From positions 1 through 62,290 of IMG/VR virus record IMGVR_UViG_3300005529_000038: a stretch of 62,290 nucleotides of DNA; one strand, written 5' to 3'. Every line of letters starts with the position of its first letter. Positions within the stretch are counted from its first letter, which is position 1. Made by a program: the position numbers and the translations under genes. Positions 24,567 through 42,895 of this stretch are shown here, piece by piece. A model generated the notes under the pieces. That model was given only the letters and a program-made list of their open reading frames with translations. It made no database searches and was not told the origin of the DNA. Source of the DNA: a virus.

Positions 24567-25115
24567 ATGGGCAAAAGTGAAAAAAAGAAGCCGGCCGAAT
24601 CGGGCGACAAGCCGCGCGAGCGCAAGCGACTGGCGAAGATCGAATTCACGCCGGAACAGCGCAAGATCGTTGCCGGCCTCTCCGCGATCGGCTGCTCGCT
24701 CGATGAGATCGCCGCAACGCTGCGATCCTCCGGCCTGAAAATCTCCAACCGCTCGCTCGACGTGCATCTCAAAAAGGATGAGCTGCTGCGGCAGCAATAC
24801 GACGACGGCATCGCGACACGAAACGTCAAGCTTCGATCGCGCATGTTCCAGCAAGCGATGATGATGAACGGCGCTGGCGTGCATCAGGCTCAGTTCCTCG
24901 CGGTCAACTGGCTCGGCATGAAGCGCAACCCAGAGATCACCGACGAAGAGACCGCAAAGAATCAGGCCAAACATGACCAGGAGGCAGCAACTGCCCGCGA
25001 GCGCGTCACTGCTAAGCTCGAAGCTCTCTCCAAACGCCTCGCTGGCCGAGTTGCTGGCGGAGACACCGACGGAATTAAAAAGCTACCTGCGCCAGCTCAA
25101 GCAGAAGGAAATTGA
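24567..25115 (+). CDS. Putative terminase small subunit, 182 aa
   Basis: Start ATG 24567 (MGKSEKKKPAESGDKPRERK). IVAGLSAIGCSLDEIAATLR is an HTH-like DNA-recognition segment followed by a helical oligomerisation region (MFQQAMMMNGAGVHQAQFLA). The basic N-terminus and acidic/basic C-terminus suit a TerS. Identity rests mainly on position, overlapping the large terminase by 143 bases. No specific TerS family was recognised. Confidence 0.65.
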   Translation: MGKSEKKKPAESGDKPRERKRLAKIEFTPEQRKIVAGLSAIGCSLDEIAATLRSSGLKISNRSLDVHLKKDELLRQQYDDGIATRNVKLRSRMFQQAMMMNGAGVHQAQFLAVNWLGMKRNPEITDEETAKNQAKHDQEAATARERVTAKLEALSKRLAGRVAGGDTDGIKKLPAPAQAEGN

Positions 25116-26421
25116 AGCGCTCGAATATGACTGGCGGTTCTGGGCGCGCCGCAACCAGATGGAGCCGCCCGGCGAAGCCTGGTCGATCTGGGCGATCATT
25201 GCCGGCCGCGGTTTCGGCAAGACCCGCACCGGCGCCGAATGGATCCGCGGCCTTGCCTATCCCCGCGGCTCGACGCCGCTGACCGGCGGCAAGATCGGCC
25301 ATATCGCCCTGGTCGCAGAGACCGCGGCCGACGCCCGCGACGTCATGGTCGGCTACGGCAAGGGCCCGGGCGAGGCCAGCGGCCTGCTCCAGGTCTGCCC
25401 GCCGGACTTCCGCCCGACCTATGTCGGCTCGACCCGGTCGGTGACCTTCCCCAATGGCGTGAGCTGCACGCTCTACAACGGCACCGAGCCCGACCAGCTG
25501 CGCGGCCCGCAGCACGGCGCCGCGTGGTGCGATGAGCTGGCCAAATGGCGCTATGCGCAAGAGGCCTATGACCAGCTCGAATTCGGCCTGCGCATCGGCG
25601 ACAACCCGCGCACCGTGATCACCACGACACCGCGGCCGATCAAGCTGCTCAAGGATATCCTGGCCGAAGAGACGACGGTGATGACGCACGGCTCCACCGA
25701 GGAGAACCGGGCGAACCTGTCGGCCAAGTTCATCAAGCGCGTCATCGAGAAATACGAGGGAACGCGGCTCGGCCGGCAGGAGCTGGCGGCCGAGATCCTG
25801 GACGACACGCCTGGCGCGCTGTGGTCGCGCGCCATGATCGACGCCCAGCGTATCAAGCCGCATCAGCTGCCCGACCTGGTCAGGGTCGTCGTCGCGATCG
25901 ACCCGGCGGTGTCGACCAACGAAGACAGCAACGAAACCGGCATCATTTGCGCCGGCAAGACCGACGGGCCCGATCCCGATTACTACGTGCTCGAGGACGC
26001 CAGCGACGTCCACACCCCGGGCGAATGGGCAAAGGAAGCAGTCGCGCTGTTCGACGCCAGGCATGCCGACCGGATCGTCGGCGAGGTCAACAATGGCGGC
26101 AACATGGTGGAGTCGACCGTGCGCAATGAGCGCCCGCATATCTCCTACCGCGCCGTCCACGCCTCCCGCGGCAAGTACACCCGGGCCGAGCCGATCTCAG
26201 CGCTTTACGAAAAGAAAAAGGTCCATCACGTAGGAAGCTTTGCCCGGCTCGAGGACCAAATGTGTGCCTTCACCTCCGACTTCGACCGCAAGGCCAACGG
26301 CTACTCGCCCGACCGCATGGATGCGCTGGTCTGGGCGTTAACGGAGCTTAATTCGGTCGTGGTCGATGATGACGTCGGCGGCGTGGTCTCGGTCCCGAAG
26401 CCCGCTCAAACCCTATGGTGA
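24973..26421 (+). CDS. Terminase large subunit (DNA-packaging ATPase/nuclease), 482 aa
   Basis: Residues 77-84 (AGRGFGKT) are Walker A. GAAWCDELAKW is Walker B with the catalytic glutamate. VVVAIDPAVSTNEDSNETGI begins the RNase H-like nuclease domain, closed by GYSPDRMDALVWAL. The sequence type matches terminases of alphaproteobacterial phages and gene transfer agents. The start at 24973 overlaps TerS by 143 bases, which is long; an internal start cannot be excluded. It pumps DNA through the portal encoded next. Confidence 0.9.
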   Translation: MTRRQQLPASASLLSSKLSPNASLAELLAETPTELKSYLRQLKQKEIEALEYDWRFWARRNQMEPPGEAWSIWAIIAGRGFGKTRTGAEWIRGLAYPRGSTPLTGGKIGHIALVAETAADARDVMVGYGKGPGEASGLLQVCPPDFRPTYVGSTRSVTFPNGVSCTLYNGTEPDQLRGPQHGAAWCDELAKWRYAQEAYDQLEFGLRIGDNPRTVITTTPRPIKLLKDILAEETTVMTHGSTEENRANLSAKFIKRVIEKYEGTRLGRQELAAEILDDTPGALWSRAMIDAQRIKPHQLPDLVRVVVAIDPAVSTNEDSNETGIICAGKTDGPDPDYYVLEDASDVHTPGEWAKEAVALFDARHADRIVGEVNNGGNMVESTVRNERPHISYRAVHASRGKYTRAEPISALYEKKKVHHVGSFARLEDQMCAFTSDFDRKANGYSPDRMDALVWALTELNSVVVDDDVGGVVSVPKPAQTLW

Positions 26422-26427
26422 TCGACC

Positions 26428-29361
26428 TTGGCTGAAGACGAGATCAAGAAAGAGGCGGCCGTCGCGCCGCCTGGGCCGCCCAACGTCGAGCGCGACGCCA
26501 CGCTGGTCACCATCACCGGAGATCCCAAAGCCGGCCCGATGGCCGAGATCGGCGTCTCTGGCCTCAAGGCCTTCTCCGGCTACATCAACGAAGAATACCT
26601 GCATGAGCTGCAGGGCCAGAAGGCGATCAAGGCCTATAACACGATGGGGCATGACCCGATCGTGGCCGCGGTGCTGCAGGCGATCACGCTGATCCTGCGC
26701 GCCGTCGACTGGCGCATCGAGCCGGCCGACGACGGCAGCGACGTGCAGAACGATCACTCGGCCCAGGCCGAGAAGGAAGCCGAGTTTGCACAGCAGCTGC
26801 TCGACGACATGTCCCACACTTGGGAGGACACGGTCGGCGAGATTTGCAGCATGCTGCAATACGGCTGGAGCTATCTCGAGATCGTGCTCAAGACCCGCAA
26901 CGGTCCCGACCAGGACGACGGCGCGCGGCGATCGAAGTACGACGACGGCCGCATCGGCATCCGCAAGCTGCCGCTGCGCTCGCAGGACTCACTGTATCGC
27001 TGGCAGCTGCAGACCGACGGCGGCGTCGATGGCATGTGGCAGCAATCGCCGCAGGGCGGCCCGCAGCTGTTCATCCCGATCCAGCGCGCGCTGCTGTTCC
27101 GCACCACCTCGAAAAAGAATTCGCCGGAAGGCGTGTCGATCCTGCGCGCGTCCTACCGTCCTTGGTACGTCAAGCGCGGCATCGAGGACCATGAGGCGAT
27201 CGGCATCGAGCGCGAGCTCGCCGGCCTGCCCGTGGTCAAGATCCCGAAGAAATATCTGGCGCCCAACGCGGCGCCGGCCGACATCGCATTCATGAACAAG
27301 ATGACGGCGCTGGCGCGCGACGTGAAGATGAATTCGCAGGCCGGCGTGGTGCTGCCGAGCGAGACCTTCGTCAATCCGGACGGCACCTGGTCGTCGGTGC
27401 CGATGGTCAGCCTCGAGCTGTTGTCGAGCGGCAGCTCAAAGCGCGGCATCGACACCGACCCGGTGGTGAAGCGCTACAATCGCCTGATCGCGATGGCCGC
27501 CCTCGCCGACTTCCTCACGCTGGGCGATGAGAAGGGATCGTTCGCGCTCTCGCAAAACAAAAGCGAGCTGTTCCTGCGGGCCTGCAAAGCCTACCTCGAC
27601 CAGATCGGTTCGGTGATCAACCGTTTCCTGTTCCCGCGCATGTTCTCCTACAACGGCATCGCGCATGAGCTGTTGCCGACGGCCAAGCCTGGCCGCCTGT
27701 CACCGGTCAACCTCGCCGAGCTTGGCAACTACATCGCGCAACTGGCCTCCGCCGGCGCGCCGCTGTTCCCGAACCAAGACCTTTCCGATCATCTCGCCGA
27801 CGTCGCCGGCCTGCCGGAGCCGCCACAGGATATCGGTCTGTTGGCCGAGCCTGGCAGCGTGCCGCGCATGGGCCAGATCAATCCGGACACCGGCGAGCCG
27901 ATGACGCTCGACGAACACGCGGAGTTTCAGCAGGCGCAATACGGCGACCAGTCGTTCGAAGACCAGGCCATCACGCCGGCCGCAGCGCAAGGCGCAGGCG
28001 CGGCCAAGCGCCGTTTCTTCCCGGTCGGAGGCGCGCGCAAGCGGGCGCCCCTCCCTTTTTCGAAGCGGACGACGACGAAGTTTAACCAGGCGCACGATCA
28101 GCATGGCCGGTTCGCCGCGGCCACCGGCGCCGATTCGGATCATGGCGTCGTCCCGCCGAAGATGGCGGACGATGAGTGGCACCGCATCCTCGCCGAAGCC
28201 AAAGAGCGCAACGACACCACCGAGGCCCACGTCAACGACGTTCTCGGCTCGAAGAACAACATGGCGGTGTACACCCATCCAGATCGCCCGCAGCGACGCG
28301 TGGTCGTGTCGCGATCTTTGGACGCGCGCTACGGCATGCGGGTCACCGACTTTGACGAGAAAGGCCCGATCGGGCATCGCGAGTATTCGACCGGCGATCG
28401 GCGCGGCCTGCATTCGGAGATCAGTCAGGCGCTCGCCGGCGGCATGAAACGCACGGTGCTGAAGTATGACGAAAGCCTGCATCCGCGCGATGAGCACGGC
28501 CGCTGGACGTTCGGCAACGGTACCAACGGCATGGCGACCGCGCTCTACCAGCAAACGCTCGAGCCCAACGTCAAGCCGGAGGACATCTATAACCGCGTCG
28601 ACCCCGATGCGCAGCGCGCCGCGACCGAGCTCGAGGCCGACATGGCCAAACGCGTGCCGTCAGATCAGCCCGTCGAGCACGGCGGTTTTATGCGGCCAGA
28701 TGGCAGCTACACGCCGGAGCGCCAGGCGCTGCATGAGAAGCTGCTCGATCACGTCTTCACGCCGGAGCGGATCGATGCCGCAACGCCGGTGGAAGGCGAG
28801 AAGCCGACAATGACGATGCTGGGCGGCCGCGGCGGTTCTGGCAAAAGCTTCCTGACCGACCCGTCGAAAGGTGGTCCGGTCGACCCGAACCGAACCATCG
28901 TGCTCAACTCCGATGACTTCAAAACGCCGCTGGCGAAGGCGTCCGGCCTCGATGAGCGCTATGCAGCGCTCTACCATGAGGAATCCGATCACGTCCTCAA
29001 GATGGCATCGGCGCGCGCCAAGGCGCTTGGCGTCAATGTCGCGTTCGATGCGACGATGAAGAGTGAGAGTACCGCGGCCGCGCGCATGCTGGAGTATCAA
29101 AATGCCGGCTACGTCATCAACGGCCACTACGTTCACACGGCGCCGCAGCTGGCGGCGCAGCGTTCGATCGGGCGGTTCTACAAAGGCGGCAAGGCCAATG
29201 GTCGCTACGTGCCGCCGGCAGTGATCCTGGGCAACGTCAACAACGAAAAGAACTTCGACAAACTCAGTCCCAACTTCCGCAGCTGGTCGATCTGGGATAA
29301 CAACGGGTCCAAGCCCGCGCTGGTCGCGCATAGCCCGACCTTCAAACCGAGCTTTAGGTGA
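26428..29361 (+). CDS. Portal protein (DUF935/Mu gp29-like) fused to a zeta-toxin-like kinase, 977 aa
   Basis: The start is TTG 26428. Residues 1 to about 520 are a DUF935-type portal (KAYNTMGHDPIVAAVLQAIT; EGVSILRASYRPWYVKRGIE; LFLRACKAYLDQIGSVINRF). Two linker motifs follow, FNQAHDQHGRFA near 551 and HPRDEHGRWTFG near 688, flanking an unassigned domain at about 575-680. Residues about 790-960 look like a zeta/PezT kinase: Walker A GGRGGSGKS (799-807), LNSDDFKTP with D829/D830, VNVAFDATMKSE, and a late basic segment with R926. Zeta toxins phosphorylate UDP-N-acetylglucosamine. Portals are usually 450-550 aa. A twelve-copy portal ring would carry twelve kinases if the fusion is not cleaved. 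Confidence 0.82.
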   Translation: MAEDEIKKEAAVAPPGPPNVERDATLVTITGDPKAGPMAEIGVSGLKAFSGYINEEYLHELQGQKAIKAYNTMGHDPIVAAVLQAITLILRAVDWRIEPADDGSDVQNDHSAQAEKEAEFAQQLLDDMSHTWEDTVGEICSMLQYGWSYLEIVLKTRNGPDQDDGARRSKYDDGRIGIRKLPLRSQDSLYRWQLQTDGGVDGMWQQSPQGGPQLFIPIQRALLFRTTSKKNSPEGVSILRASYRPWYVKRGIEDHEAIGIERELAGLPVVKIPKKYLAPNAAPADIAFMNKMTALARDVKMNSQAGVVLPSETFVNPDGTWSSVPMVSLELLSSGSSKRGIDTDPVVKRYNRLIAMAALADFLTLGDEKGSFALSQNKSELFLRACKAYLDQIGSVINRFLFPRMFSYNGIAHELLPTAKPGRLSPVNLAELGNYIAQLASAGAPLFPNQDLSDHLADVAGLPEPPQDIGLLAEPGSVPRMGQINPDTGEPMTLDEHAEFQQAQYGDQSFEDQAITPAAAQGAGAAKRRFFPVGGARKRAPLPFSKRTTTKFNQAHDQHGRFAAATGADSDHGVVPPKMADDEWHRILAEAKERNDTTEAHVNDVLGSKNNMAVYTHPDRPQRRVVVSRSLDARYGMRVTDFDEKGPIGHREYSTGDRRGLHSEISQALAGGMKRTVLKYDESLHPRDEHGRWTFGNGTNGMATALYQQTLEPNVKPEDIYNRVDPDAQRAATELEADMAKRVPSDQPVEHGGFMRPDGSYTPERQALHEKLLDHVFTPERIDAATPVEGEKPTMTMLGGRGGSGKSFLTDPSKGGPVDPNRTIVLNSDDFKTPLAKASGLDERYAALYHEESDHVLKMASARAKALGVNVAFDATMKSESTAAARMLEYQNAGYVINGHYVHTAPQLAAQRSIGRFYKGGKANGRYVPPAVILGNVNNEKNFDKLSPNFRSWSIWDNNGSKPALVAHSPTFKPSFR

Positions 29362-29366
29362 GTATC

Positions 29367-29558
29367 ATGGCCGACGACAGCACCAACAGCACCGGCATCA
29401 AATCGAAGGCTGGCCCGATTCCTGATGCGGCTTTCGAGAACGATGCGGCCGCGGCGCTCGGCGATCCGCAGTTCAACGCGGAGGGCAAAAAGGCCTTCGA
29501 CGAAAAAACAGCCCGCCTCATCTCTGAGCGGGCTGCGCGGTTGGGTCGATCGACTTAG
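29367..29558 (+). CDS. Small acidic protein directly after the portal-kinase gene, 63 aa
   Basis: Start ATG 29367 (MADDSTNSTGIKSKAGPIPD) with AGGTGA upstream. It ends in a charged helix (FDEKTARLISERAARLGRST). It could be a head accessory, or a partner or inhibitor of the kinase domain because it follows that domain directly. It is not similar by eye to the epsilon antitoxin. It converges with the leftward gene at 29555. Confidence 0.55.
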   Translation: MADDSTNSTGIKSKAGPIPDAAFENDAAAALGDPQFNAEGKKAFDEKTARLISERAARLGRST

Positions 29559-29752
29559 GCTGCCAGGGTCTCCGGCGCCAGTTCACTTTCCGCCTCGCGG
29601 ATCGCCTCCGAGGTGATGACCTCGAAATTGCTGAGTAGCAGGTTGGCTTCCGAAAGAGTCTTGGGCGGGTTGAGCTTGATCGCCTCATTCATCACCGAGA
29701 CGATGTAGAGCAGTTTCTTTGCCGTGGTGATCGGCAACGGCTTGTAGGCCAT
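29555..29752 (-). CDS. Hypothetical helical protein, 65 aa
   Basis: MAYKPLPITTAKKLLYIVSV begins a helical protein with NEAIKLNPPKTLSEANLLLS. It is the only gene of the first inserted leftward unit, read from the double-operator promoter at 29804-29841. AAGGAGG upstream is preceded by a 6-bp hairpin. Confidence 0.65.
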   Translation of the reverse strand: MAYKPLPITTAKKLLYIVSVMNEAIKLNPPKTLSEANLLLSNFEVITSEAIREAESELAPETLAA

Positions 29753-29782
29753 TTTCGGCCTTCCTTTCCTCCTTTTTTGCCA

Positions 29783-29797
29783 GCGGGACCATCCCGC
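29783..29797 (-). promoter_or_regulatory. Leader hairpin before the 65-aa gene
   Basis: GCGGGA-TGG-TCCCGC on the minus strand, followed by TGGCAAAAAAGGAGG. It has the same geometry as the GGGCC-N3-GGCCC leader hairpins but a different stem. Confidence 0.5.
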
Positions 29798-29803
29798 AAG
29801 CTC

Positions 29804-29841
29804 AATATATGCCCTGGCGTCGCATACGTCAATATGACGTA
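29804..29841 (-). promoter_or_regulatory. Leftward promoter with two adjoining operators
   Basis: Minus strand: -35 TTGACG (29832-29827), 17-base spacer, -10 TATATT (29809-29804). Operator TACGTCATATTGACGTA (29841-29825) covers the -35. A weaker copy TGCGACGCCAGGGCATA (29824-29808) fills the spacer. The two 17-mers abut exactly. Confidence 0.7.
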
Positions 29842-29873
29842 GTTCCGGAATTCCGGATAGGATCGAAACGGTC

Positions 29874-29975
29874 CTAGTGGCGGAAGATCAGGACGTAGCC
29901 CAACGCGATGATCACCACCAATATGGCAAGGTTGGCGAACATCGCATAGGCGAATGGTGTGGGGCGCTTACGCAT
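29874..29975 (-). CDS. Micro-membrane peptide, 33 aa
   Basis: ATG 29975 overlaps the stop of the HTH gene. MRKRPTPFAYAMFANLAILV then VIIALGYVLIFRH is a basic N-terminus with one long membrane helix, giving an N-in topology. It is coupled to the putative regulator, so regulator and membrane peptide are co-expressed. Confidence 0.6.
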   Translation of the reverse strand: MRKRPTPFAYAMFANLAILVVIIALGYVLIFRH

Positions 29976-30180
29976 CGAGCAACTGCTCGGCTGGGATTTG
30001 GTGAATCTCCACAAGCCGCAGCAGCTTGCCGATCGGCTTCGGCACCGGCGAGGTGCCGGAATCGATCCGCTGGCACTGCCGCTTGCTGATGCCGAGATAG
30101 GGCGCGGCGCCGACGATCGACAGGCCAAGCTGCTCGGTGACAATGGAATGGAATTCTTTCCGGGTCAGGGGCTTCGCCAC
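29968..30180 (-). CDS. XRE/Cro-like HTH protein, candidate operator-binding regulator, 70 aa
   Basis: HSIVTEQLGLSIVGAAPYLG and ISKRQCQRIDSGTSPVPKPI form a helix-turn-helix with recognition helix ISKRQCQRI, followed by KLLRLVEIHQIPAEQLLDA. ATG 30180 has TTGAGGAGAC upstream. The gene is read from a promoter bearing two abutting copies of the phage-wide operator, so autoregulation by this protein is the simplest hypothesis for the regulon. Confidence 0.7.
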   Translation of the reverse strand: MAKPLTRKEFHSIVTEQLGLSIVGAAPYLGISKRQCQRIDSGTSPVPKPIGKLLRLVEIHQIPAEQLLDA

Positions 30181-30219
30181 GGCTGTAGTCTCCTCAAGAT
30201 GCTTGCCGGCTCGAAGCGA

Positions 30220-30257
30220 TATCTATGACACCATGACGCTTACGTCAATGTGGCGTA
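30220..30257 (-). promoter_or_regulatory. Leftward promoter with two adjoining operators, upstream of the HTH gene
   Basis: Minus strand: -35 TTGACG (30248-30243), 17-base spacer, -10 TAGATA (30225-30220). Operators TACGCCACATTGACGTA (30257-30241) and AGCGTCATGGTGTCATA (30240-30224) abut. The layout equals those at 29804 and 32609. Confidence 0.68.
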
Positions 30258-30258
30258 A

Positions 30259-30483
30259 TCACTTGCCGCGTCTCGACTTGGCGTCACCTCTCCGCGGCTC
30301 GGTCAGGTATTCGCGCGCCTTGCGCAAATTGCGCAGGTACAGCTCGGAATAGACCCACTCCTCGGTCAGCTCCGCCTTGTAGAGCATCCGCGTGTTGCTA
30401 TCGACGCGCACGATCAGCTTGGCGATGGCGCGCGTTGCCTGGCGCCGCAGCTCGCGCATCGAGTCCTTGTCGGTGTTGCTCAT
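30259..30483 (-). CDS. Basic hypothetical protein, 74 aa
   Basis: The last gene of the middle leftward unit. It is basic throughout (MSNTDKDSMRELRRQATRAI; YLRNLRKAREYLTEPRRGDA) with a probable helix-strand-helix layout. ATG overlaps the stop of the 41-aa gene. The family is unknown. Confidence 0.6.
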   Translation of the reverse strand: MSNTDKDSMRELRRQATRAIAKLIVRVDSNTRMLYKAELTEEWVYSELYLRNLRKAREYLTEPRRGDAKSRRGK

Positions 30484-30605
30484 GGCCGCATCCTCGCCCG
30501 CTCCAGCTGCCGCAACTGCTCATCGAGCAGCCTGATCCGCAGCAACAGCAATTCGATGTAGCGGAGCCGCAGCAATTCCGAGCGCGGCAGATTGACATTG
30601 ATCAT
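30480..30605 (-). CDS. Micro-protein, 41 aa
   Basis: MINVNLPRSELLRLRYIELL, then LLRIRLLDEQLRQLERARMR and P. It is a single amphipathic leucine/arginine helix, probably a coiled coil. It is coupled by ATGA overlaps on both sides (start 30605 on the previous stop; stop 30480 on the next ATG). It is too regular to be chance sequence. Confidence 0.6.
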   Translation of the reverse strand: MINVNLPRSELLRLRYIELLLLRIRLLDEQLRQLERARMRP

Positions 30606-30811
30606 GTGTGCGCCTTCGCCGCGATGCATTCGACCTTTTCGAGTTCGATCAGCAGCACGCGTGCCGTCGAGTCGGTGAGCGATATCAACGTGCCGCCGCC
30701 GGCGATCTGGATCGTGCCCTGGTAGTTGCGCAACGTGGTCCAGACGTCGACGATGGTCTGAGGTCCGATCCGCAGGCGGTTCACCGCCGCGTTGAAGTCG
30801 GCCGGCGTCAT
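30602..30811 (-). CDS. Hypothetical protein, 69 aa
   Basis: MTPADFNAAVNRLRIGPQTI, then strands (QGTIQIAGGGTLISLTDSTA) suggest a small beta-rich domain ending in a helix. It overlaps both neighbours by four bases. The family is unknown. Confidence 0.6.
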   Translation of the reverse strand: MTPADFNAAVNRLRIGPQTIVDVWTTLRNYQGTIQIAGGGTLISLTDSTARVLLIELEKVECIAAKAHT

Positions 30812-31086
30812 TCCTCGCCCCTGTCCTTCACGTCGGGGATCGACTCGGCCTCGGCCTCAGCTTGTGTCGCGCCGCGCATCTTGCGCGTGCCGGCAGCCGC
30901 GGCGAGCAGCTGGCTTTCGAGCTTGGCTTTGCCCTTATCGAATTTGCGCACGCCCTTGGGCGACAGCGCGATGCCATCAGGCCGCTTGTGCAGGCCGTTG
31001 TGGACGGCCGAAGTGAGCACGGCGAGCAGTGCAAACCATTCGTCGCCGCGCATGGTGACGGTGACGTTGTCAGTCGAAAAGGCCAT
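30808..31086 (-). CDS. Hypothetical protein, 92 aa
   Basis: MAFSTDNVTVTMRGDEWFAL opens a domain with a central helix (AVLTSAVHNGLHKRPDGIAL) and an acidic C-terminal tail. No motif is recognised. It is coupled to the next gene. Confidence 0.6.
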   Translation of the reverse strand: MAFSTDNVTVTMRGDEWFALLAVLTSAVHNGLHKRPDGIALSPKGVRKFDKGKAKLESQLLAAAAGTRKMRGATQAEAEAESIPDVKDRGEE

Positions 31087-31087
31087 G

Positions 31088-31492
31088 TCAGTCTCCGCTG
31101 TCGATCGTCATGTCGAGGCCGCACTTGGAACAGCGGCCGGGATGCCAGCCGCGCGAGTGATTGGCGCCGGGATCGTCGACCTTGGTGTGCTGGCAGATTG
31201 CGAATTTGAGGCCCGTGGCGGTCGAGCACTGCTTTTCGGCGTTCCACTCCGTCCAGGCCACGATGCCGGAGCCGTAGAGCTGACCGCCCTGGCCGTGGTC
31301 GAGGCAGAAGCTCACATTCCACCTTTTCGATTTGCCTGGCACGACGACAGAGCAGCCGCTGTGCAGCTGGCCATAGTGCAGCAACAGCGCGCCGATATCG
31401 CCCTTGATCGGCTCGGGATTCGGCAGCGGCACGTCACCGCGCATGATCGGCATCAGGTCGCCGTCGAGCGTGTAGACCTTGCGCTCAGCCAT
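31088..31492 (-). CDS. Cys/His-containing hypothetical protein, 134 aa
   Basis: Near the C-terminus HSRGWHPGRCSKCGLDMTID carries a CxxC plus histidines, a possible zinc site. The rest is beta-rich (HYGQLHSGCSVVVPGKSKRW). It starts at ATG 31492, eight bases into the preceding gene. The function is unknown. Confidence 0.6.
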   Translation of the reverse strand: MAERKVYTLDGDLMPIMRGDVPLPNPEPIKGDIGALLLHYGQLHSGCSVVVPGKSKRWNVSFCLDHGQGGQLYGSGIVAWTEWNAEKQCSTATGLKFAICQHTKVDDPGANHSRGWHPGRCSKCGLDMTIDSGD

Positions 31493-31664
31493 GGGCCAGC
31501 TCCCGTTCCATCAGCACGCTTTCGATCTTGTAGGACAGCCGGCCGAGCAAGTAGCCGACATGGATCGACGACGGTGTCGTCTCGCGGATATCGTCGAGCA
31601 GGCTCTTCAGCTCAGCTTTCGAGAGCTTGCGAAGATCCTCTTTGGTCATCGTCATCGGCGTCAT
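31485..31664 (-). CDS. Hypothetical helical protein, 59 aa
   Basis: Start ATG 31664 (MTPMTMTKEDLRKLSKAELK) because GAGGAGGAGAACG lies directly upstream. KEDLRKLSKAELKSLLDDIR and YLLGRLSYKIESVLMERELA form two helices. The family is unknown. Confidence 0.6.
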   Translation of the reverse strand: MTPMTMTKEDLRKLSKAELKSLLDDIRETTPSSIHVGYLLGRLSYKIESVLMERELAHG

Positions 31665-31675
31665 CGTTCTCCTCC

Positions 31676-31888
31676 TCAATAGCCGGCGACGACGTCACCG
31701 GGCTGATACTTGTCGCGATCGATGGGCGTGAACCGAACCGCCATGCCGCTGGCGCTGATCCAGCGGATCGCGTGCTCGCCGTCAAAGCGGTAGTAGTAGC
31801 CAGGCCGATCGTCGGGATCGCGACTGCCGTCATAGCTGCCAGTGATCGTCAGCCTGCGGCCGTTCGATTTAAAGCGCGCGCCGATCAC
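31676..31888 (-). CDS. Hypothetical beta-rich protein with GTG start, 70 aa
   Basis: GTG 31888 overlaps the stop of the 47-aa gene (GTGA). The strands RRLTITGSYDGSRDPDDRPG, YYYRFDGEHAIRWISA and VRFTPI suggest a small beta barrel. No family is recognised. Confidence 0.6.
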   Translation of the reverse strand: MIGARFKSNGRRLTITGSYDGSRDPDDRPGYYYRFDGEHAIRWISASGMAVRFTPIDRDKYQPGDVVAGY

Positions 31889-32028
31889 CGCACCACCTCC
31901 ACCTTGATGATCTCCAGGTGTTCAAACGTCGCGGCCCACCACTCGCGGATCGCGGCCTCGCTCTTGCCGTCGTAGAACGTCGAACGGATGCGATGACCGT
32001 CGGTCCAGAGGATGCGGAAGCGGATCAA
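31885..32028 (-). CDS. Micro-protein with TTG start, 47 aa
   Basis: It reads LIRFRILWTDGHRIRSTFYD (TTG start), then GKSEAAIREWWAATFEHLEI and IKVEVVR. A beta-hairpin then helix then strand fold is likely. The start overlaps the previous stop (TTGA) and its TGA overlaps the next GTG. Such tight coupling on both sides supports translation despite the rare start codon. Confidence 0.55.
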   Translation of the reverse strand: MIRFRILWTDGHRIRSTFYDGKSEAAIREWWAATFEHLEIIKVEVVR

Positions 32029-32213
32029 AGCTCGGACTCCACATCGAACGGCGCCGGCATCTGGCGCCTGATCTTGAAAGCGACGGCGCGCATTCTGACG
32101 GCCATTTCAGGATGAGACGTGGTTGCGGCCTTGCTCAATGCGATGACGATTGTCATCAGCTCGCTGACGTCGAGCGTATCGCCGCCCGGCAGTTCGATCG
32201 GCTTAAACATCAT
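32025..32213 (-). CDS. Hypothetical protein, 62 aa
   Basis: MMFKPIELPGGDTLDVSELM then helices (TIVIALSKAATTSHPEMAVR). Basic C-terminal half. It is coupled to both neighbours by four-base overlaps. The family is unknown. Confidence 0.6.
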   Translation of the reverse strand: MMFKPIELPGGDTLDVSELMTIVIALSKAATTSHPEMAVRMRAVAFKIRRQMPAPFDVESEL

Positions 32214-32422
32214 GCCCTCTCATCTTGCTCGTAGCGCTTGGTGTTCGGGTTGTAGAACATCAGGCCTGGCCGATCGCGCATGAACTTCTGGAGATCGGCA
32301 GAGGCTTGCGGCGTCGAGACTTCGAACATCCGTTCAAGATGCCCGCGATTGATGAAGCCATAGACGCGCAGCATCTGCGCAATCCATTCCTGGCGGTGAC
32401 GTGCAAACCAGCGATCAGACAT
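32210..32422 (-). CDS. Winged-helix DNA-binding-like protein, 70 aa
   Basis: Start ATG 32422 (MSDRWFARHRQEWIAQMLRV). YGFINRGHLERMFEVSTPQA then SADLQKFMRDRPGLMFYNPN is the pattern of the N-terminal winged helix seen in WYL-type and other phage regulators, with STPQASADLQKF as recognition helix. No effector domain is present. It may be a second regulator of the inserted units. Confidence 0.65.
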   Translation of the reverse strand: MSDRWFARHRQEWIAQMLRVYGFINRGHLERMFEVSTPQASADLQKFMRDRPGLMFYNPNTKRYEQDERA

Positions 32423-32591
32423 CGGGACAGCTCCAGCCCTCGCGATAGAAGATTTGGACCCAGCCGTCGGCGAGGTCGCGCCAGCCGTCGATCCAGATGA
32501 ACTTGCCGCGCCAGTTGCGACGCTGGCCGACGCGTTCGACCCAGATGGCGGCATCGGCGGCGGGAATGGTGAAACTCTGGCGGGTTGACAT
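32415..32591 (-). CDS. Promoter-proximal protein of the middle unit, 58 aa
   Basis: ATG 32591 has GAGG seven bases upstream. It reads MSTRQSFTIPAADAAIWVER, then VGQRRNWRGKFIWIDGWRDL and ADGWVQIFYREGWSCPDV, a tryptophan-rich mixed protein. Its stop overlaps the winged-helix gene start by eight bases. The function is unknown. Confidence 0.6.
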   Translation of the reverse strand: MSTRQSFTIPAADAAIWVERVGQRRNWRGKFIWIDGWRDLADGWVQIFYREGWSCPDV

Positions 32592-32608
32592 GTTGGAACC
32601 TCACAATC

Positions 32609-32646
32609 AATGTACGTCACGATGGCGCTTGCGTCAAGGTGACGTA
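32609..32646 (-). promoter_or_regulatory. Leftward promoter with two adjoining operators
   Basis: Minus strand: -35 TTGACG (32637-32632), 17-base spacer, -10 TACATT (32614-32609). Operators TACGTCACCTTGACGCA (32646-32630) and AGCGCCATCGTGACGTA (32629-32613) abut. The region overlaps the 3' end of the upstream leftward gene. Confidence 0.7.
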
Positions 32647-32837
32647 ATGGGCCTGGCGCGGCGGCGATTGAGCGCCGCCAGTGAGCGCGCGTTGTGGCAG
32701 ACCTTGCAGGTGCTCTGCCGCCACGGATAGCCGTTGGCCACGCGATAGAATTCGGTCTCCGGCTTTTCGACCTGGCACATCCGGCAGACCTTGCGCGGCG
32801 TGTCCGCGGTGGCGATCTCAGGTTTCGTGCATTTCAT
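32634..32837 (-). CDS. Zinc-knuckle protein, 67 aa
   Basis: RKVCRMCQVEKPETEFYRVA and TCKVCHNARSLAAL give two CxxC pairs about 24 residues apart, the layout of the N-terminal zinc site of phage endonuclease-VII-like or HNH-associated ribbons. No HNH residues follow. The basic C-terminus ends NRRRARPITSP. The last gene of the upstream unit. Confidence 0.6.
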   Translation of the reverse strand: MKCTKPEIATADTPRKVCRMCQVEKPETEFYRVANGYPWRQSTCKVCHNARSLAALNRRRARPITSP

Positions 32838-32916
32838 CGTCGAGCACCATCAGGAAGGCCAGCAACGAAACTTCGTGGAAGATCAGCCAGAGCATCACGG
32901 CATCGTAGAGCGTCAC
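32818..32916 (-). CDS. Micro-membrane peptide with GTG start, 32 aa
   Basis: It reads VTLYDAVMLWLIFHEVSLLA (GTG start) then FLMVLDDEMHET, one hydrophobic helix with an acidic end. GTG 32916 overlaps the previous stop (GTGA), and it overlaps the zinc-knuckle start by 20 bases. Together with the 33-aa peptide at 29874 it suggests each inserted unit may carry a membrane peptide. Confidence 0.5.
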   Translation of the reverse strand: MTLYDAVMLWLIFHEVSLLAFLMVLDDEMHET

Positions 32917-33272
32917 GGCTGCTCTCCGAGCAGCGCGCGCATCTCCGGGGTCAGCTCGCCCTGGTCGTCGAAAACGGCGATCGGATCGAAGCTGTCATCG
33001 CCGTCGCGCTCCGCGTACAGCGGCCACGGCCGCCGGCTGTTGAGCGGCCTTGTCAGCGTGTAGGAATGCCGGCCGATCTCCAGCGGCAAATTGTAGACGA
33101 AGATCGCGCCATCGCTCTCGCGCTGCATGATCTCGAATCGCGGCACGTCTTCATTGCGAAAGCGCGCCTCGCAGCCGGCCAGCCGCTCCATCGCGATGTA
33201 AAGCTGGCCGTAGCACTTGAGCAGGTTGGCCTCGTTGAAGAGGTCGCGGGGGATCACGCGGCGATAGGTCAT
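32913..33272 (-). CDS. Hypothetical protein, 119 aa
   Basis: Start ATG 33272 (MTYRRVIPRDLFNEANLLKC). A helical first half (YGQLYIAMERLAGCEARFRN) is followed by strands (SDGAIFVYNLPLEIGRHSYT) and an acidic end. The family is unrecognised. ATG overlaps the upstream stop. Confidence 0.6.
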   Translation of the reverse strand: MTYRRVIPRDLFNEANLLKCYGQLYIAMERLAGCEARFRNEDVPRFEIMQRESDGAIFVYNLPLEIGRHSYTLTRPLNSRRPWPLYAERDGDDSFDPIAVFDDQGELTPEMRALLGEQP

Positions 33273-33565
33273 TGCTTCAACTCCGGTCCAAAGACATGAC
33301 AGGGTTTGTCGGCGCCGTTCTGCTTGCGGTACCACTCAGGCGGATTGCTGGGCTGAACGATGACGCCGAGGAAACCGCACTCCTCGAAATAGGCGAGCAC
33401 CTTGCCCGGGCCGATCTGGTTGACGCCGACGATGACGTCGGCGCCGATCGCGGGCGGAGGTTGCTTGCCGCCCCACTTCATCGGGTCGTCGCGGTTGACG
33501 ATCTGATCGCCGCTCCAGATCAGTTGCTGCCATTCCGGCAGAGCGTCGAGCTTACGAATTGCCAT
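33269..33565 (-). CDS. Hypothetical protein, 98 aa
   Basis: Start ATG 33565 (MAIRKLDALPEWQQLIWSGD). The central strands (ADVIVGVNQIGPGKVLAYFE; CGFLGVIVQPSNPPEWYRKQ) suggest an SH3-like barrel of the kind many small phage proteins have. It overlaps the upstream gene by 14 bases. Confidence 0.6.
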   Translation of the reverse strand: MAIRKLDALPEWQQLIWSGDQIVNRDDPMKWGGKQPPPAIGADVIVGVNQIGPGKVLAYFEECGFLGVIVQPSNPPEWYRKQNGADKPCHVFGPELKQ

Positions 33566-33711: not shown

Positions 33712-33942
33712 TCACTTCGTCCAGCCGGACAGCGCGATCTCCTCCGCCCCAAACACCAGGGACAGGCCGCAATCGTCGCAGGGATAGCGCCGAGCATCCG
33801 GCTCACAGGCATCCTTGCTGGCGCCGCACGCGACGCAGAAGCCCATGTTTTCGTCGGCCGCGCGCTCAAGGCGCTCAACCGAGAAGCGCTTGGGAATGAT
33901 CTTGCCCGACGCGCTGCGCTTGATCTTTAGGGAAGTCGTCAC
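33712..33942 (-). CDS. Zinc-ribbon protein, 76 aa
   Basis: GTG 33942 has AGGAGG six bases upstream. SLKIKRSASGKIIPKRFSVE then GFCVACGASKDACEPDARRY and PCDDCGLSLVFGAEEI give a two-CxxC ribbon. The opening has a characteristic basic N-terminus that I have seen in phage zinc-ribbon proteins of related hosts. It is promoter-proximal in its unit, read from 33989-34017. Confidence 0.7.
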   Translation of the reverse strand: MTTSLKIKRSASGKIIPKRFSVERLERAADENMGFCVACGASKDACEPDARRYPCDDCGLSLVFGAEEIALSGWTK

Positions 33943-33961
33943 CGTTTTCCTCCTCAATGGC

Positions 33962-33974
33962 GGGCCGATGGCCC
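33962..33974 (-). promoter_or_regulatory. Leader hairpin before the zinc-ribbon gene
   Basis: GGGCC-ATC-GGCCC on the minus strand followed by GCCATTGAGGAGG. The thirteen bases are identical to those at 15851-15863, in front of a different promoter of the same class. Confidence 0.55.
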
Positions 33975-33988
33975 TTCGGGACACCATC

Positions 33989-34017
33989 AATATACGCCAT
34001 AGTGACGTAGCACGCAA
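33989..34017 (-). promoter_or_regulatory. Leftward promoter with single operator
   Basis: Minus strand: -35 TTGCGT (34017-34012), 17-base spacer, -10 TATATT (33994-33989). Operator TACGTCACTATGGCGTA (34009-33993) fills the spacer and shares its final TA with the -10. It is nearly the same as the promoter at 15877-15905. Confidence 0.7.
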
Positions 34018-34027
34018 GGGGCGAGTT

Positions 34028-35077
34028 TTGGCAATTTTGGTCGCAAAACGGGCCGTTCGGCCGGGCGGGATTGGGCACAATTCGGGCCTGTTCGCAAAGA
34101 CCGAAGCCGACGCGGAAACGGTCGACCGCCTCCTCGCGCAAAGCGACAAGATCAGCGCCCAGGTTCGGCAAGCCTATGTCGACGCGGTGCGCCGGCTGCA
34201 AAGTCAGGTCGACGTCGCGCGCATCAGCGATCTGCTCGAGGCCGGGCGCATCTCCGAAGCGCTGCAACAGATCAACGCGCAAAGCGTGGCCGCCGGGTTC
34301 ATGCCGGTCGTCGACGCCATCACCGCAGCGACGTTCGGCGTTGCGCGATCGACCGCGCAACTGGCGACGCAGGCCTCAGGAATCCAGTTCTCGTTTTCGC
34401 AGGTCAACCCGGAGGCGGTCAGCTTCGTCCAGCACTACGAGATGAACCTGATCCGCGAGATGACCAGCGAAACGCTCAAGACGGTTCGCGGCATCATCAA
34501 TGCCGGCGTCACCGCCGGCGACAATCCGCTCGACATTGCGCGCGAGCTTCGCGCGCACATCGGGCTCACCGAGCGCCAGGCGCAGGCGGTGCGCAACTAT
34601 CGTCGCCTCCTGGAGGATGGTGATGGGCAGGCCCTGCAGAGGCAGCTTCGCGATCGACGTTTTGATCGCTCTGTTCGGAATCATGTTGCTGGCACTCGCG
34701 CTCTATCGTCTGAGCAGGTCGACAACATGGTCGAGCGCTACTCGCAGCGGTACCTCAAATATCGCGCCGAGACGATCGCCCGCACCGAGGCCAAGCGCGC
34801 GCTAGGCACCGGCAATCAACTGCTCTGGAACCAAGCGGTCAAGGACGGTCGCGTCGCCGAGGACGACGTCACCAAAACCTGGATCACCGTCGGCGACCAC
34901 AAGGTCAGGCCCACCCACCGCGAGCTGCACAAACAAACTGTGGGTCTCAACGACACGTTTACCTGTTCGGAAGGGGACATCAGTTACCCGGGAGATCCTG
35001 GCGCAGACGTCGGGCTCACTGCGAATTGCCGATGCACCTGCGTCTATCGCTTCAAGGTGAAGGGGCAGCAGCCATGA
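34028..35077 (+). CDS. MuF-like minor head protein, about 349 aa
   Basis: The C-terminal 130 residues are the Mu gpF/SPP1 gp7 family: ETIARTEAKRALGTGNQLLW, KTWITVGDHKVRPTHRELHK, then GLTANCRCTCVYRF with the usual Cys cluster. The N-terminal helical part begins with RPGGIGHNSGLFAKTEADAE. The open frame extends to 33815, but upstream codons read through the opposing promoter and hairpin, so TTG 34028 (after AAGGGGCGAG) is preferred; the start is uncertain. Such proteins bind the portal, enter the head and aid assembly or ejection. It is displaced 4.5 kb from the portal gene by the inserted leftward units. Confidence 0.8.
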   Translation: MAILVAKRAVRPGGIGHNSGLFAKTEADAETVDRLLAQSDKISAQVRQAYVDAVRRLQSQVDVARISDLLEAGRISEALQQINAQSVAAGFMPVVDAITAATFGVARSTAQLATQASGIQFSFSQVNPEAVSFVQHYEMNLIREMTSETLKTVRGIINAGVTAGDNPLDIARELRAHIGLTERQAQAVRNYRRLLEDGDGQALQRQLRDRRFDRSVRNHVAGTRALSSEQVDNMVERYSQRYLKYRAETIARTEAKRALGTGNQLLWNQAVKDGRVAEDDVTKTWITVGDHKVRPTHRELHKQTVGLNDTFTCSEGDISYPGDPGADVGLTANCRCTCVYRFKVKGQQP

Positions 35078-35451: not shown

Positions 35452-35653
35452 TCAGGTCCGCCAGTAGCGAAACCGTTAATCCCGCGGAAGCAATTCGCGA
35501 ACGAATATCGGCTAGGACGATCCGCAACGCCGGGTCGGTCGTCGCGGCCAGCCTGATCTCGAGCTGTTCGTCGAGGTCAGACAGGAAGGCCAGCGTGGTC
35601 CCGTGAGGGCCGCCAGGCGCGTCGACCGATCCGTCTCGCTTGTAGAGGACCAA
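35429..35653 (-). CDS. Possible antisense small protein, 74 aa
   Basis: The 200-base gap between the secreted protein and the protease has no good rightward frame. The minus strand reads LVLYKRDGSVDAPGGPHGTT, then LAFLSDLDEQLEIRLAATTD and PALRIVLADIRSRIASAGLT from TTG 35653, with balanced composition. It could be a genuine antisense gene or an accident of codon bias. No promoter was found. Confidence 0.35.
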   Translation of the reverse strand: MVLYKRDGSVDAPGGPHGTTLAFLSDLDEQLEIRLAATTDPALRIVLADIRSRIASAGLTVSLLADLIRSSSPA

Positions 35654-35656
35654 ACC

Positions 35657-36358
35657 TTGCCCCTGACCACGACGCAATTGTCGCCCGTCCAGAAGTTTCT
35701 GCCGCCGGCGGCGATGGAGATTTTCACCAAGGCGGCGAACGACGCCGACGGCGCCGGGCAGGCCTTCAATGACTGCATCCGCGCCGGCTGGGCCGCAACC
35801 AAGGAAGCCGGCTGGCAGGCGCCATCCACCGGGAAAAAGTGGGTCCTGGTTAACAAGGGCGAACCTGGCGTCGGCGACGTGCACGCCACGGCGCCGATGG
35901 GCGGCAAGAAGCCGAAGAAACCCGGCGACACCACGGTCGACGATGACGGCGACGGCGCCGACTGCGCCAAGGAATTCACCGCCAAGGTGCTCAAGGTCGA
36001 CGGCGGCCACGGCCTGGTGTTCGGCTGGGCGATCGTCTGCAAGCAGGCCGGCGAGGACTATTTCGACACCCAGGGCGACCACATCCCTGAGGACTCGATG
36101 CTGGCGGCCTCGCTCGATTTCATGCTCAACGCCCGCGTCGCCAAGGACATGCATCAGGGCGAGGAGATCGGCCCGATCGTGTTCGCCTGGCCGATGACCG
36201 GCGACATCGCCAAGGCGATGGGCGTCGAGACCGGCGGCCAGACCGGCCTGATGATCGCGATGAAGCCGCCGGCCGACATTCTCCAAAAATTTAGGAACGG
36301 CGATTACACGGGTTTCTCGATTGGCGGCTCGCGGGTCGAAGACGAGGAAGTTGCGTGA
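35657..36358 (+). CDS. ChaB-like domain plus XkdF-type putative prohead protease, about 233 aa
   Basis: TTG 35657 follows AGAGG by eight bases; a GTG at 35603 is an alternative. Residues 8-55 (SPVQKFLPPAAMEIFTKAAN; AFNDCIRAGWAATKEAGW) resemble ChaB. Residues 105-225 (FTAKVLKVDGGHGLVFGWAI; QGDHIPEDSMLAASLDFMLN; VFAWPMTGDIAKAMGV; GDYTGFSIGG) match the XkdF/phage serine-protease-like family found before scaffold and capsid genes. It probably processes the prohead. It overlaps the next gene by GTGA. Confidence 0.78.
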   Translation: MPLTTTQLSPVQKFLPPAAMEIFTKAANDADGAGQAFNDCIRAGWAATKEAGWQAPSTGKKWVLVNKGEPGVGDVHATAPMGGKKPKKPGDTTVDDDGDGADCAKEFTAKVLKVDGGHGLVFGWAIVCKQAGEDYFDTQGDHIPEDSMLAASLDFMLNARVAKDMHQGEEIGPIVFAWPMTGDIAKAMGVETGGQTGLMIAMKPPADILQKFRNGDYTGFSIGGSRVEDEEVA

Positions 36359-39868: not shown

Positions 39869-40602
39869 ACGCGCTGCGGGACATCGCAGCGCGGCACGGA
39901 ATCGCCATGGCCCAAGCTCCAATGTCCCCACTTCCACCGCTCGGCCGGGTGGAGGCGCCATGGTGGGACGACAAGCCGCTCGCGATCGTCGGCACCGGAT
40001 CCTCGCTCAACGGCTTCGACTTCGCATCGTTCGACAACCCGCGCTTTCGCGTGCTCGCCGTCAAAGAGGCGGTGTGGGATTTGCCGTTCGCCGCGGCGGT
40101 GTTCGGCCTCGACCGGCCTTGGATCAATCGCCAGGCGCAGCGGCTGCAGGATTGCCCGGTGCCCAAGGTGCTGTCCGTCGAGCCTGAGGTGCGGCCCTGC
40201 GCACAGATCGACGGCGCGCTGTACCTGATGCGCCAGCGCTTCCCGGGCTTCTCCGACGATCCGGCGGTGATCCAGAGCGGCGCCAACTCCGGCTTTGGCG
40301 CGGTCAACTACGCCTACCTGAAACGCGCCAAGCACATTTGCCTGTTCGGCTTCGACTACAAGCCGGGCCCGCACTATTGCCAGGACCGCTACACCGACGG
40401 CAACGGCAACCCGCAGCCGGCCGATCACAACGCGCGCTACTGGCTCAATTGGGGCGACAATTTCAACGACTGCCGGGCGCAGCTCGAGCGCGCCGGCGTC
40501 ACGGTCATGAACGCATCGATCCACTCGACCGTGAAGGCTTTTCCAAAGTGTTCCATCGAGGAGGGGTTACGGTGGCTGATCAACATCCCGCAAAGGTCGT
40601 AG
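39865..40602 (+). CDS. DUF115/sialyltransferase-like protein, 245 aa
   Basis: WWDDKPLAIVGTGSSLNGFD is a Rossmann-like G-T-G-S-S-L loop as in DUF115 and related GT-like proteins of phages. LPFAAAVFGLDRPWINRQAQ, PAVIQSGANSGFGAVNYAYL and CLFGFDYKPGPHYCQDRYTD complete the pattern. It probably handles a nucleotide sugar or lipid-linked glycan in the cytoplasm. First gene of the sugar-modification cluster; it overlaps the GT-A gene by 31 bases. Confidence 0.65.
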   Translation: MNALRDIAARHGIAMAQAPMSPLPPLGRVEAPWWDDKPLAIVGTGSSLNGFDFASFDNPRFRVLAVKEAVWDLPFAAAVFGLDRPWINRQAQRLQDCPVPKVLSVEPEVRPCAQIDGALYLMRQRFPGFSDDPAVIQSGANSGFGAVNYAYLKRAKHICLFGFDYKPGPHYCQDRYTDGNGNPQPADHNARYWLNWGDNFNDCRAQLERAGVTVMNASIHSTVKAFPKCSIEEGLRWLINIPQRS

Positions 40603-41378
40603 GCGGCAAGCGGCGAATCTTCATCGGCTTCGATCCGCGCGAGGTGGTCGCGTTCGCCATCGCGCGGGACACCTGCCGGCAGCACATGACATTGCCGGCG
40701 CCGATTTATGGCCTGATGCTGTCCGACCTGCAGCGCAGCGGACTGTATCAGCGGCCGATCGAAATGCGGCCGTCGGCCGCCGATCGCCCGGTGATGTGGG
40801 ACGTGGTCAGCGACGCACCGATGGCCACCGAGCACGCCAATGCGCGTTTCTTCGTGCCGCTGCTCGCCCGCAACGGGTGGGCATTGTTCACCGATGGCGA
40901 CGTGCTGTTTCGCGGCAATGTCTGCCGGCTGTTCGACCAGCTCGACGACAGCAAGGCGGTCTATTGCGTCAAGCACAACCATCAGCCGGCGACCGGCATC
41001 AAGATGGATGGACAGATACAGACGCAATACAGCCGGAAAAACTGGTCGAGCGTCATCGCCTTCAACTGCGATCATCCCGCCAACGCCAAGCTGCGGTCAT
41101 TGAGCTTCCTCAATTCGACGCCGGGCCGCGACCTGCATCGGCTGTGCTGGATCGACGATGACGATCTGATCGGCGAGCTCGCTCCCAACTGGAATTACCT
41201 GGTCGGCTACACCGACCCGTCGATCTCCGCCACCATCGTGCACTTCACGAACGGCGTTCCGGACATGCCAGGCTATGAGACGCAGCGGTATGCCGATGAA
41301 TGGTTCCTGGCGCGCGAACGCTGGATTCGCGGTGGCAGCGGCCTTCTGGTCGACACCTGGATTCAGGGGGGCAAGTGA
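40572..41378 (+). CDS. GT-A family glycosyltransferase (GT8-like), 268 aa
   Basis: GTG 40572 has AGGAGGGG seven bases upstream. RRIFIGFDPREVVAFAIARD starts the fold. GWALFTDGDVLFRGNVCRLF holds the D-x-D metal site (DGD). CWIDDDDLIGELAPNWNYLV and ISATIVHFTNGVPDMPGYET, with the late His-Phe, match GT8-type enzymes. It should transfer a sugar from a nucleotide donor. The acceptor could be virion protein or host surface glycan. Confidence 0.75.
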   Translation: MADQHPAKVVGGKRRIFIGFDPREVVAFAIARDTCRQHMTLPAPIYGLMLSDLQRSGLYQRPIEMRPSAADRPVMWDVVSDAPMATEHANARFFVPLLARNGWALFTDGDVLFRGNVCRLFDQLDDSKAVYCVKHNHQPATGIKMDGQIQTQYSRKNWSSVIAFNCDHPANAKLRSLSFLNSTPGRDLHRLCWIDDDDLIGELAPNWNYLVGYTDPSISATIVHFTNGVPDMPGYETQRYADEWFLARERWIRGGSGLLVDTWIQGGK

Positions 41379-42885: not shown

Positions 42886-42895
42886 GGAGTCACCG

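What the first reader, a model, noticed from the sequence alone, without database searches (positions are those of the whole stretch)
26428..29361. Portal protein carrying a C-terminal zeta-toxin-like kinase
One uninterrupted 977-aa frame joins a DUF935-type portal to a P-loop kinase-like domain with the zeta/PezT layout: Walker A at residues 799-807, D829/D830, a VAFDAT strand and a late basic R926 segment. Two D-x-HGR[FW] linkers and an unassigned domain lie between. Zeta toxins poison cell-wall precursor synthesis by phosphorylating UDP-N-acetylglucosamine. Twelve copies per portal ring would put a kinase inside or at the neck of every head. It might be ejected with DNA to block wall synthesis or competing phages, be a checkpoint on packaging, or act as a defence-like toxin released from broken heads. 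The small gene after it (29367-29558) could be its inhibitor.
Basis: partly seen in the sequence, partly recalled or inferred. Interest (0 to 1): 0.78.

Follow-up and report, generated by a model that had tools for sequence, protein, structure and literature searches.

The report
Phage portal fused to zeta-toxin kinase
A soil-type phage carries a toxin-like kinase as a tail on the ring protein through which DNA enters its head, followed by a tiny overlapping gene of a family that travels with this kinase in many other phages and is probably its off-switch, so the phage seems to carry its own restrained toxin in the virion.

Summary
One 977-aa frame (26428-29361) joins a Mu-type portal (PF06074, 2e-30) to a zeta-toxin-fold kinase (PF06414, 1e-17; predicted fold pLDDT 95.8; best solved match epsilon/zeta). 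It is not a sequencing join: two related phages carry the same fusion, and separate branches of the kinase tree are fused to a second portal family, to MuF and to a prohead protease.

The kinase belongs to a phage-dedicated zeta clade (175 relatives in IMG/VR, one fragment in about 85,000 species genomes). The residues essential in zeta (K46, D67, E116, R158, R171) are matched by residues invariant in 64 of 64 relatives. The secondary UDP-GlcNAc contacts are not conserved, so the substrate is open.

The next gene overlaps the kinase stop by 4 bases. It belongs to an undescribed family (core GxIPxxxFEN[DE]) found beside 22 of 27 kinases on this side of the tree and 1 of 37 on the other. It is absent from kinase-less portal relatives. 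The kinase is often preceded by a PRDxxGR[FW] linker that also joins other head proteins to ADP-ribosyltransferases, Acb1, NUDIX and phosphatases.

Best reading: a head-borne effector cassette with its own neutraliser, a new variant of MuF-type/polyvalent head-fused effectors. Delivery, substrate and inhibition are untested.

The parts
26428..29361 (+). portal-zeta kinase fusion gene, 977 aa, TTG start
   Evidence: same fusion in L002 and L005
26530..27981 (+). Mu-type (DUF935) portal domain, residues 35-518
   Evidence: PHROG_113 4.5e-75; PF06074 2.3e-30; PDB 11bp 1e-59
28081..28113 (+). linker 1, FNQAHDQHGRF (residues 552-562)
   Evidence: sequence; same motif type before modules in relatives
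28114..28464 (+). middle module, residues 563-679, unassigned; replaced by an unrelated module in L002, absent in L005
28465..28506 (+). linker 2, YDESLHPRDEHGRW (residues 680-693)
28516..29358 (+). zeta-toxin-fold kinase domain, residues 697-977
   Evidence: PF06414 1.2e-17; profile vs zeta 1gvn 2.6e-12; AF2 pLDDT 95.8; Foldseek 1gvn 1e-9
28822..28848 (+). Walker A GGRGGSGKS, residues 799-807
   Evidence: residues 799-806 invariant in 64/64 relatives
29358..29558 (+). small partner gene (66 aa from GTG; 63 aa from ATG 29367), start overlaps kinase stop; putative neutraliser
24973..26421 (+). terminase large subunit, directly upstream (context)
   Evidence: PF03237 9.4e-25
33926..35077 (+). 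MuF head-morphogenesis protein, separate gene (context)
   Evidence: PF04233 1e-11; PHROG_3517 2.9e-82
35603..36358 (+). XkdF-type putative prohead protease (context; candidate to process the linkers)
   Evidence: PF14550 3.4e-6

Best explanation
The gene encodes a portal whose C-terminus carries an exchangeable effector module, an active zeta-fold small-molecule kinase. Twelve copies would be built into each head (by the portal's role) and held in the capsid interior. They would enter the next host with the DNA, whole or after cleavage at the GR[FW] linkers, and there phosphorylate a nucleotide-type metabolite, to the phage's advantage in that cell. The small overlapping gene makes a peptide that keeps the kinase off in the producing cell. 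Shown here: the fusion, zeta fold and intact catalytic residues, the phage-dedicated clade, recurrent fusion to head proteins, and the constant coupling with the small gene. Inferred: packaging, delivery, cleavage, substrate, and inhibition by the small protein.
For: Fusion and fold. Catalytic K806, D829, D874, R916 and R926 invariant in 64/64, matching zeta residues whose loss abolishes toxicity (K46, D67, E116, R158, R171; PMC6356619). Carriers are head proteins: Portal_Mu x3, Phage_portal_3 x7, MuF x3, XkdF protease x1; others sit as separate genes beside portal, MuF, protease or capsid genes. At least three separate portal fusions on the tree. Phage-dedicated: 175 viral relatives, 1 fragment in genome contigs. 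Small gene: 4-base overlap in window, L002, L005 and L003; leave-group-out profile finds it near the kinase in 22/22 loci as the top hit, E to 2.5e-11, second hits 2-9 bits; 22/27 vs 1/37 across the tree, 0 of 500 shuffles as clustered; missing after the kinase-less portal in L007 and in kinase-less portal loci. Linker-plus-module exchange between close relatives. Precedent: MuF-fused toxins Apk2 and Bxa have downstream immunity proteins that block them (PMC11699363).
Against: No virion proteomics, no toxicity assay, no substrate. Five of 27 kinases on this side of the tree lack a recognisable small gene, and most of the other side lacks it. The read-through fold of L037 kinase plus small protein gave only moderate confidence for the small part and no coordinates to inspect, so binding is not shown. 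The window phage shows no integrase, unlike the temperate phages that carry MuF toxins.
Confidence: 0.55

Rival explanations
1. The kinase stays in the head and acts during assembly or packaging, for example as an ATP-dependent checkpoint, and is never delivered. The small gene is an assembly partner.
For: Location on the portal ring next to the packaging motor; small gene overlapping the portal-kinase gene in the late cluster.
Against: A close relative has the portal without any kinase (L007, 64% identical portal), so it is not needed for packaging. The kinase also sits on MuF, on the protease, or alone. In five phages the small gene lies within about 350 nt of the kinase on the opposite strand (a sixth is about 1.1 kb away), so it need not be co-expressed.
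Confidence: 0.12
2. Cell-wall poison as in epsilon/zeta: the kinase phosphorylates UDP-GlcNAc in the new host or in competitors, weakening the wall at entry or killing rivals (the first reader's idea, and the suggestion of Iyer et al. 2017 for MuF-fused zeta).
For: Zeta and PezT are the closest solved relatives; PMC5512222 proposes this role.
Against: Zeta's E100 and T128 contacts are not conserved; AvrRxo1 keeps ATP but not UNAG residues and phosphorylates NAD (PMC5087710); relatives with the key residues occur in viruses of haloarchaea, which lack murein.
Confidence: 0.2
3. The kinase serves the phage inside the producing cell, made in excess as portal, modifying a signalling or defence nucleotide (an anti-defence role), with little or no delivery.
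For: The same linker joins head proteins to Acb1 (anti-CBASS), NUDIX, phosphatase and ADP-ribosyltransferase modules that act on nucleotides.
Against: Late structural genes come too late to stop most defences; head-protein fusion is then unexplained.
Confidence: 0.13

Closest known systems
Polyvalent / head-fused effectors of phages (Iyer et al. 2017, PMC5512222)
   Same: Enzymatic modules fused to head proteins; zeta-like kinase on MuF, and PBECR, 2H, InPase on portal are described there.
   Different: Zeta on a portal, its overlapping small partner gene, and the shared linker are not mentioned in the text passages read.
MuF polymorphic toxins (Jamet et al. 2017, PMC5576092; Apk2, Bxa in PMC11699363)
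   Same: Head protein at the N-terminus, variable toxin at the C-terminus, small downstream immunity gene.
   Different: The carrier here is the portal, not MuF (MuF is a separate gene at 33926); no integrase found, whereas MuF toxins belong to temperate phages.
Epsilon/zeta and PezAT toxin-antitoxin systems
   Same: Kinase fold and essential residues.
   Different: Fused to a portal; partner gene is downstream and unrelated in sequence to known antitoxins; secondary UNAG contacts lost.
AvrRxo1-ORF1/ORF2
   Same: Zeta-fold kinase followed by a small gene whose product neutralises it; atypical UNAG pocket (PMC5087710).
   Different: A bacterial type III effector, not a phage structural protein; ORF2 shows no sequence similarity to the small gene.
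Cyanophage PSS2 'minor head protein', Halovirus HCTV-5 gp114, Mycobacterium phage Phrappuccino gp57
   Same: Distant zeta domains in large proteins, near a MuF-like gene (HCTV-5) or the major head protein (Phrappuccino), or annotated as head protein (PSS2).
   Different: Only 28-29% identical in the kinase; none was matched in its portal part in the same protein.

Membership tests
Zeta toxin kinase superfamily (PF06414) | profile match above curated cut-off | tested here: met
   64.5 bits vs cut-off 22.3; 67 of 68 relatives match
Zeta toxin kinase superfamily (PF06414) | Walker A lysine, catalytic Asp, metal acidic residue, two Arg | tested here: met
   K806, D829, D874 (Asp for Glu116), R916, R926 invariant in 64/64; zeta roles in PMC6356619
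Epsilon/zeta UNAG kinases | UNAG-contact residues E100, T128 | tested here: not met
   positions 858 and 886 are variable
Epsilon/zeta UNAG kinases | phosphorylates UDP-GlcNAc | not testable with these tools
   needs assay
Epsilon/zeta UNAG kinases | epsilon- or PezA-like antitoxin | tested here: not met
   small gene matches no Pfam, PHROG or PADLOC family, nor a solved structure, by sequence; fold not compared
Portal proteins (Mu type, PF06074) | profile match and location after terminase | tested here: met
   2.3e-30, gene follows TerL
MuF polymorphic toxins | MuF domain at the N-terminus | tested here: not met
   carrier is a portal; MuF is a separate gene
MuF polymorphic toxins | small ORF directly downstream that neutralises the toxin | tested here: inconclusive
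   gene and its coupling to the kinase shown; neutralisation not tested
Polyvalent / head-delivered effectors | effector domain fused to or encoded with head-packaging proteins | tested here: met
Polyvalent / head-delivered effectors | packaged in the virion and injected | not testable with these tools
   needs mass spectrometry of virions and a translocation assay

The most novel reading that the evidence does not exclude
Phages keep a general plug-in system for head-borne effectors: a conserved [FY][DNS]xx[QE]PRDxxGR[FW] linker lets enzyme modules (zeta kinases, ADP-ribosyltransferases, Acb1, NUDIX, phosphatases) be attached to portals, MuF, prohead proteases or capsid proteins. The zeta version travels with a new family of short antitoxins (GxIPxxxFEN[DE]), making a toxin-antitoxin pair whose toxin half is a virion part.
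Probability: 0.4. Interest if true: 0.78.

Novelty: new variant of a known kind. Interest (0 to 1): 0.6.

Why it matters
If the kinase is delivered, each virion would bring up to twelve toxin-fold kinases into the cell with its DNA, restrained during production by a partner peptide. That makes a testable virion-borne toxin-antitoxin pair. The small gene family gives a handle to find such kinases in unannotated phages, and the shared linker could help pick out head-delivered effectors, among them anti-defence enzymes, from metagenomic phage sequence.

Tried and rejected
(1) Sequencing or frame error joining two genes: rejected, independent contigs share the fusion. (2) A natural kinase-small-protein fusion in L046/L050 to predict the complex: the small gene lies there in another frame than the kinase, so not usable. 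(3) Reading through the L037 stop to fold kinase and small protein in one chain: kinase confident, small part pLDDT about 56-85, no coordinates available, inconclusive. (4) That the IPxxxF stretch just N-terminal to the kinase in the other branch is an in-cis version of the small protein: profile comparison weak (probability 2%, P 0.022), not claimed. (5) Middle domain of the window: no relatives in viral contigs, no family; the L002 middle domain looked ADP-ribosyltransferase-like by eye but matched nothing, so left unassigned. (6) Defence-system library: no match. (7) Integrase search for a temperate life style: none. (8) RNA structure over the kinase/small-gene junction: nothing beyond chance.

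Full report
What is there. The frame at 26428-29361 is open for 977 codons from a TTG just after the terminase large subunit. Residues 35-518 are a Mu-type portal (PHROG_113 4.5e-75; PF06074 2.3e-30; solved portals down to 1e-59). Residues 787-947 match Zeta_toxin (1.2e-17, 64.5 bits against a cut-off of 22.3). The predicted structure of residues 697-977, made with 63 relatives, has mean pLDDT 95.8, and its best solved matches are epsilon/zeta (1gvn, 3q8x), AvrRxo1 and PezT (E 1e-9 to 3e-7, TM 0.48-0.62). A profile of the family finds the same three by sequence (2.6e-12, 4.5e-8 and 1.6e-8 in that order).

Is it an active kinase? In zeta, K46, D67, E116, R158 and R171 are essential for toxicity and ATPase activity, while E100 and T128 are partly dispensable (PMC6356619). 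Aligned to these, K806, D829, D874, R916 and R926 are invariant in 64 of 64 relatives; the match of zeta R158 and R171 to R916 and R926 is my reading of the alignment. The positions of E100 and T128 vary. So the machinery for phosphate transfer is intact but the substrate cannot be read off. AvrRxo1 is a warning case: zeta fold, ATP residues kept, UNAG residues lost, and NAD as substrate (PMC5087710). Distant relatives with the key residues also occur in haloarchaeal viruses, near a MuF-like gene; that haloarchaea lack murein is general knowledge.

Not an accident of this contig. L002, from another metagenome, has a 973-aa protein of the same layout, kinase domain about 73% identical. L005 has it too, with one break in the portal part. 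Across IMG/VR, 175 places encode this kinase and 80 were fetched; the scan of about 85,000 bacterial and archaeal species genomes gave one fragment. That scan depends on exact peptide patterns, so it shows rarity, not absence. Of 68 kinase proteins, seven carry Phage_portal_3, three Portal_Mu, three MuF, three InPase and one the XkdF protease. Several others lie as their own gene beside portal, MuF, protease or capsid genes. On a maximum-likelihood tree the portal fusions fall in three separate places: the window trio, L038/L043/L047, and L055-L058. The common denominator is the head interior.

The small gene. The 66-codon gene at 29358-29558 starts inside the kinase stop codon (GTGA), and its counterparts in L002 (ATGA), L005 (GTGA) and L003 lie just as tightly on the kinase stop. 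A profile of these four finds the same kind of gene beside kinases in unrelated settings. With each locus and its close kin left out of the profile, the best hit in all 22 loci tested is the gene near the kinase; E-values range from 0.045 to 2.5e-11, while second-best hits score only 2-9 bits. On the tree it accompanies 22 of 27 kinases on the window's side of a branch with 99/85 support and 1 of 37 on the other side; no shuffle of 500 is as clustered. In L007 the portal is 64% identical but has no kinase and no such gene; MuF follows at once. Kinase-less portal loci have no hit apart from L016, the same contig as L037. In L051, L052, L082, L084 and L085 the gene lies within about 350 nt of the kinase, convergent to it, and in L053 about 1.1 kb away, so its link is with the kinase and not with the operon. 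The conserved core is short, GxIPxxxFEN[DE], with a variable charged tail. No known family or solved structure matches. Substitutions between window, L002 and L005 are most frequent at third codon positions, as expected for a coding gene. By analogy with Apk2 and Bxa, whose downstream proteins are shown to block the toxin (PMC11699363), and with the AvrRxo1 operon, the likely role is neutraliser. Direct evidence is lacking; the one-chain fold attempt was inconclusive.

The modules. In the window the portal is followed by linker FNQAHDQHGRF, an unassigned module, linker YDESLHPRDEHGRW, then the kinase. L002 has a linker, an unrelated module, the same linker again, and the kinase; L005 has one linker and the kinase. 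The two middle modules share only the linker. So whole linker-plus-module units come and go while portal and kinase stay. A linker of this type stands directly before the kinase in 18 of the 29 sequences I had grouped on the window's side by eye, and in none of the other group apart from the truncated L035. A DNA pattern for PRDEHGRW alone, with no reference to zeta, found 67 stretches in IMG/VR. About a dozen are one unrelated repeated family. Of the 47 proteins then scanned, carriers include MuF (8), Phage_portal (4), Phage_portal_3 (1), prohead proteases (4) and capsid (1); modules include ADP-ribosyltransferases, histidine phosphatase, InPase, NUDIX and the anti-CBASS enzyme Acb1. The scan gives counts per family, so which module sits on which carrier was not worked out protein by protein. 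L023 shows a portal with a histidine phosphatase. Enzymes on MuF, portal and the capsid-processing peptidase were already noted for NUDIX (PMC9503650).

How it most likely works. The portal builds one ring per head; that there are twelve copies with the C-terminus towards the capsid interior is general knowledge, not tested here. The kinase would thus be carried inside, kept silent in the producing cell by the small protein, and reach the next cell with the DNA, perhaps after cleavage at the linkers by the XkdF-type protease encoded at 35603. Each of these steps is inferred. No integrase was found, so the neutraliser would serve the producing cell rather than a lysogen, unlike MuF toxins of temperate phages (PMC5576092).

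What is known. Iyer et al. 2017 (PMC5512222) list zeta-like kinases on MuF and other enzymes on portals as injected effectors. I found no statement of zeta on a portal, of the small partner family, or of the linker; the library held open-licence papers only and figure content was not available. I therefore call this a new variant of a known kind.

Noticed in passing
L046:5683-5800 and L050 (same arrangement): The small gene lies in another frame while the kinase frame runs on without a stop through it into a further linker (RFNPNHDPSTGEF) and module, so the two genes overlap fully.
   Followed up: partly
window 29555-33335: About 3.7 kb of small genes on the minus strand interrupt the late operon between portal-kinase and MuF; L002 also appears to have minus-strand genes there.
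   Followed up: no
window 44705-45140: Start of the 423-aa frame 44705-45976 looks by eye like a Hint/intein-type domain ending in ...DGITVHNAS, at the head of a putative structural protein.
   Followed up: no
L023:905-3265: Portal fused to a histidine phosphatase (PF00300, 1.1e-27), 787 aa.
   Followed up: partly
L037:3564-5705: XkdF-type prohead protease fused to the zeta kinase, followed in frame by the small gene.
   Followed up: yes
L098:1623-4052: MuF protein carrying two zeta kinase domains in one chain.
   Followed up: partly
L043:3-5708: 1902-aa frame with portal, ADP-ribosyltransferase-type (below cut-off), DUF7178 and zeta modules in one chain.
   Followed up: partly
L111-L177: PRDEHGRW linker recurs in proteins with head domains and many enzyme modules, including Acb1, NUDIX and ADP-ribosyltransferases.
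   Followed up: partly
window 40338-43821: Glycosyltransferase- and methyltransferase-like genes lie within the structural gene region, judged by eye only.
   Followed up: no
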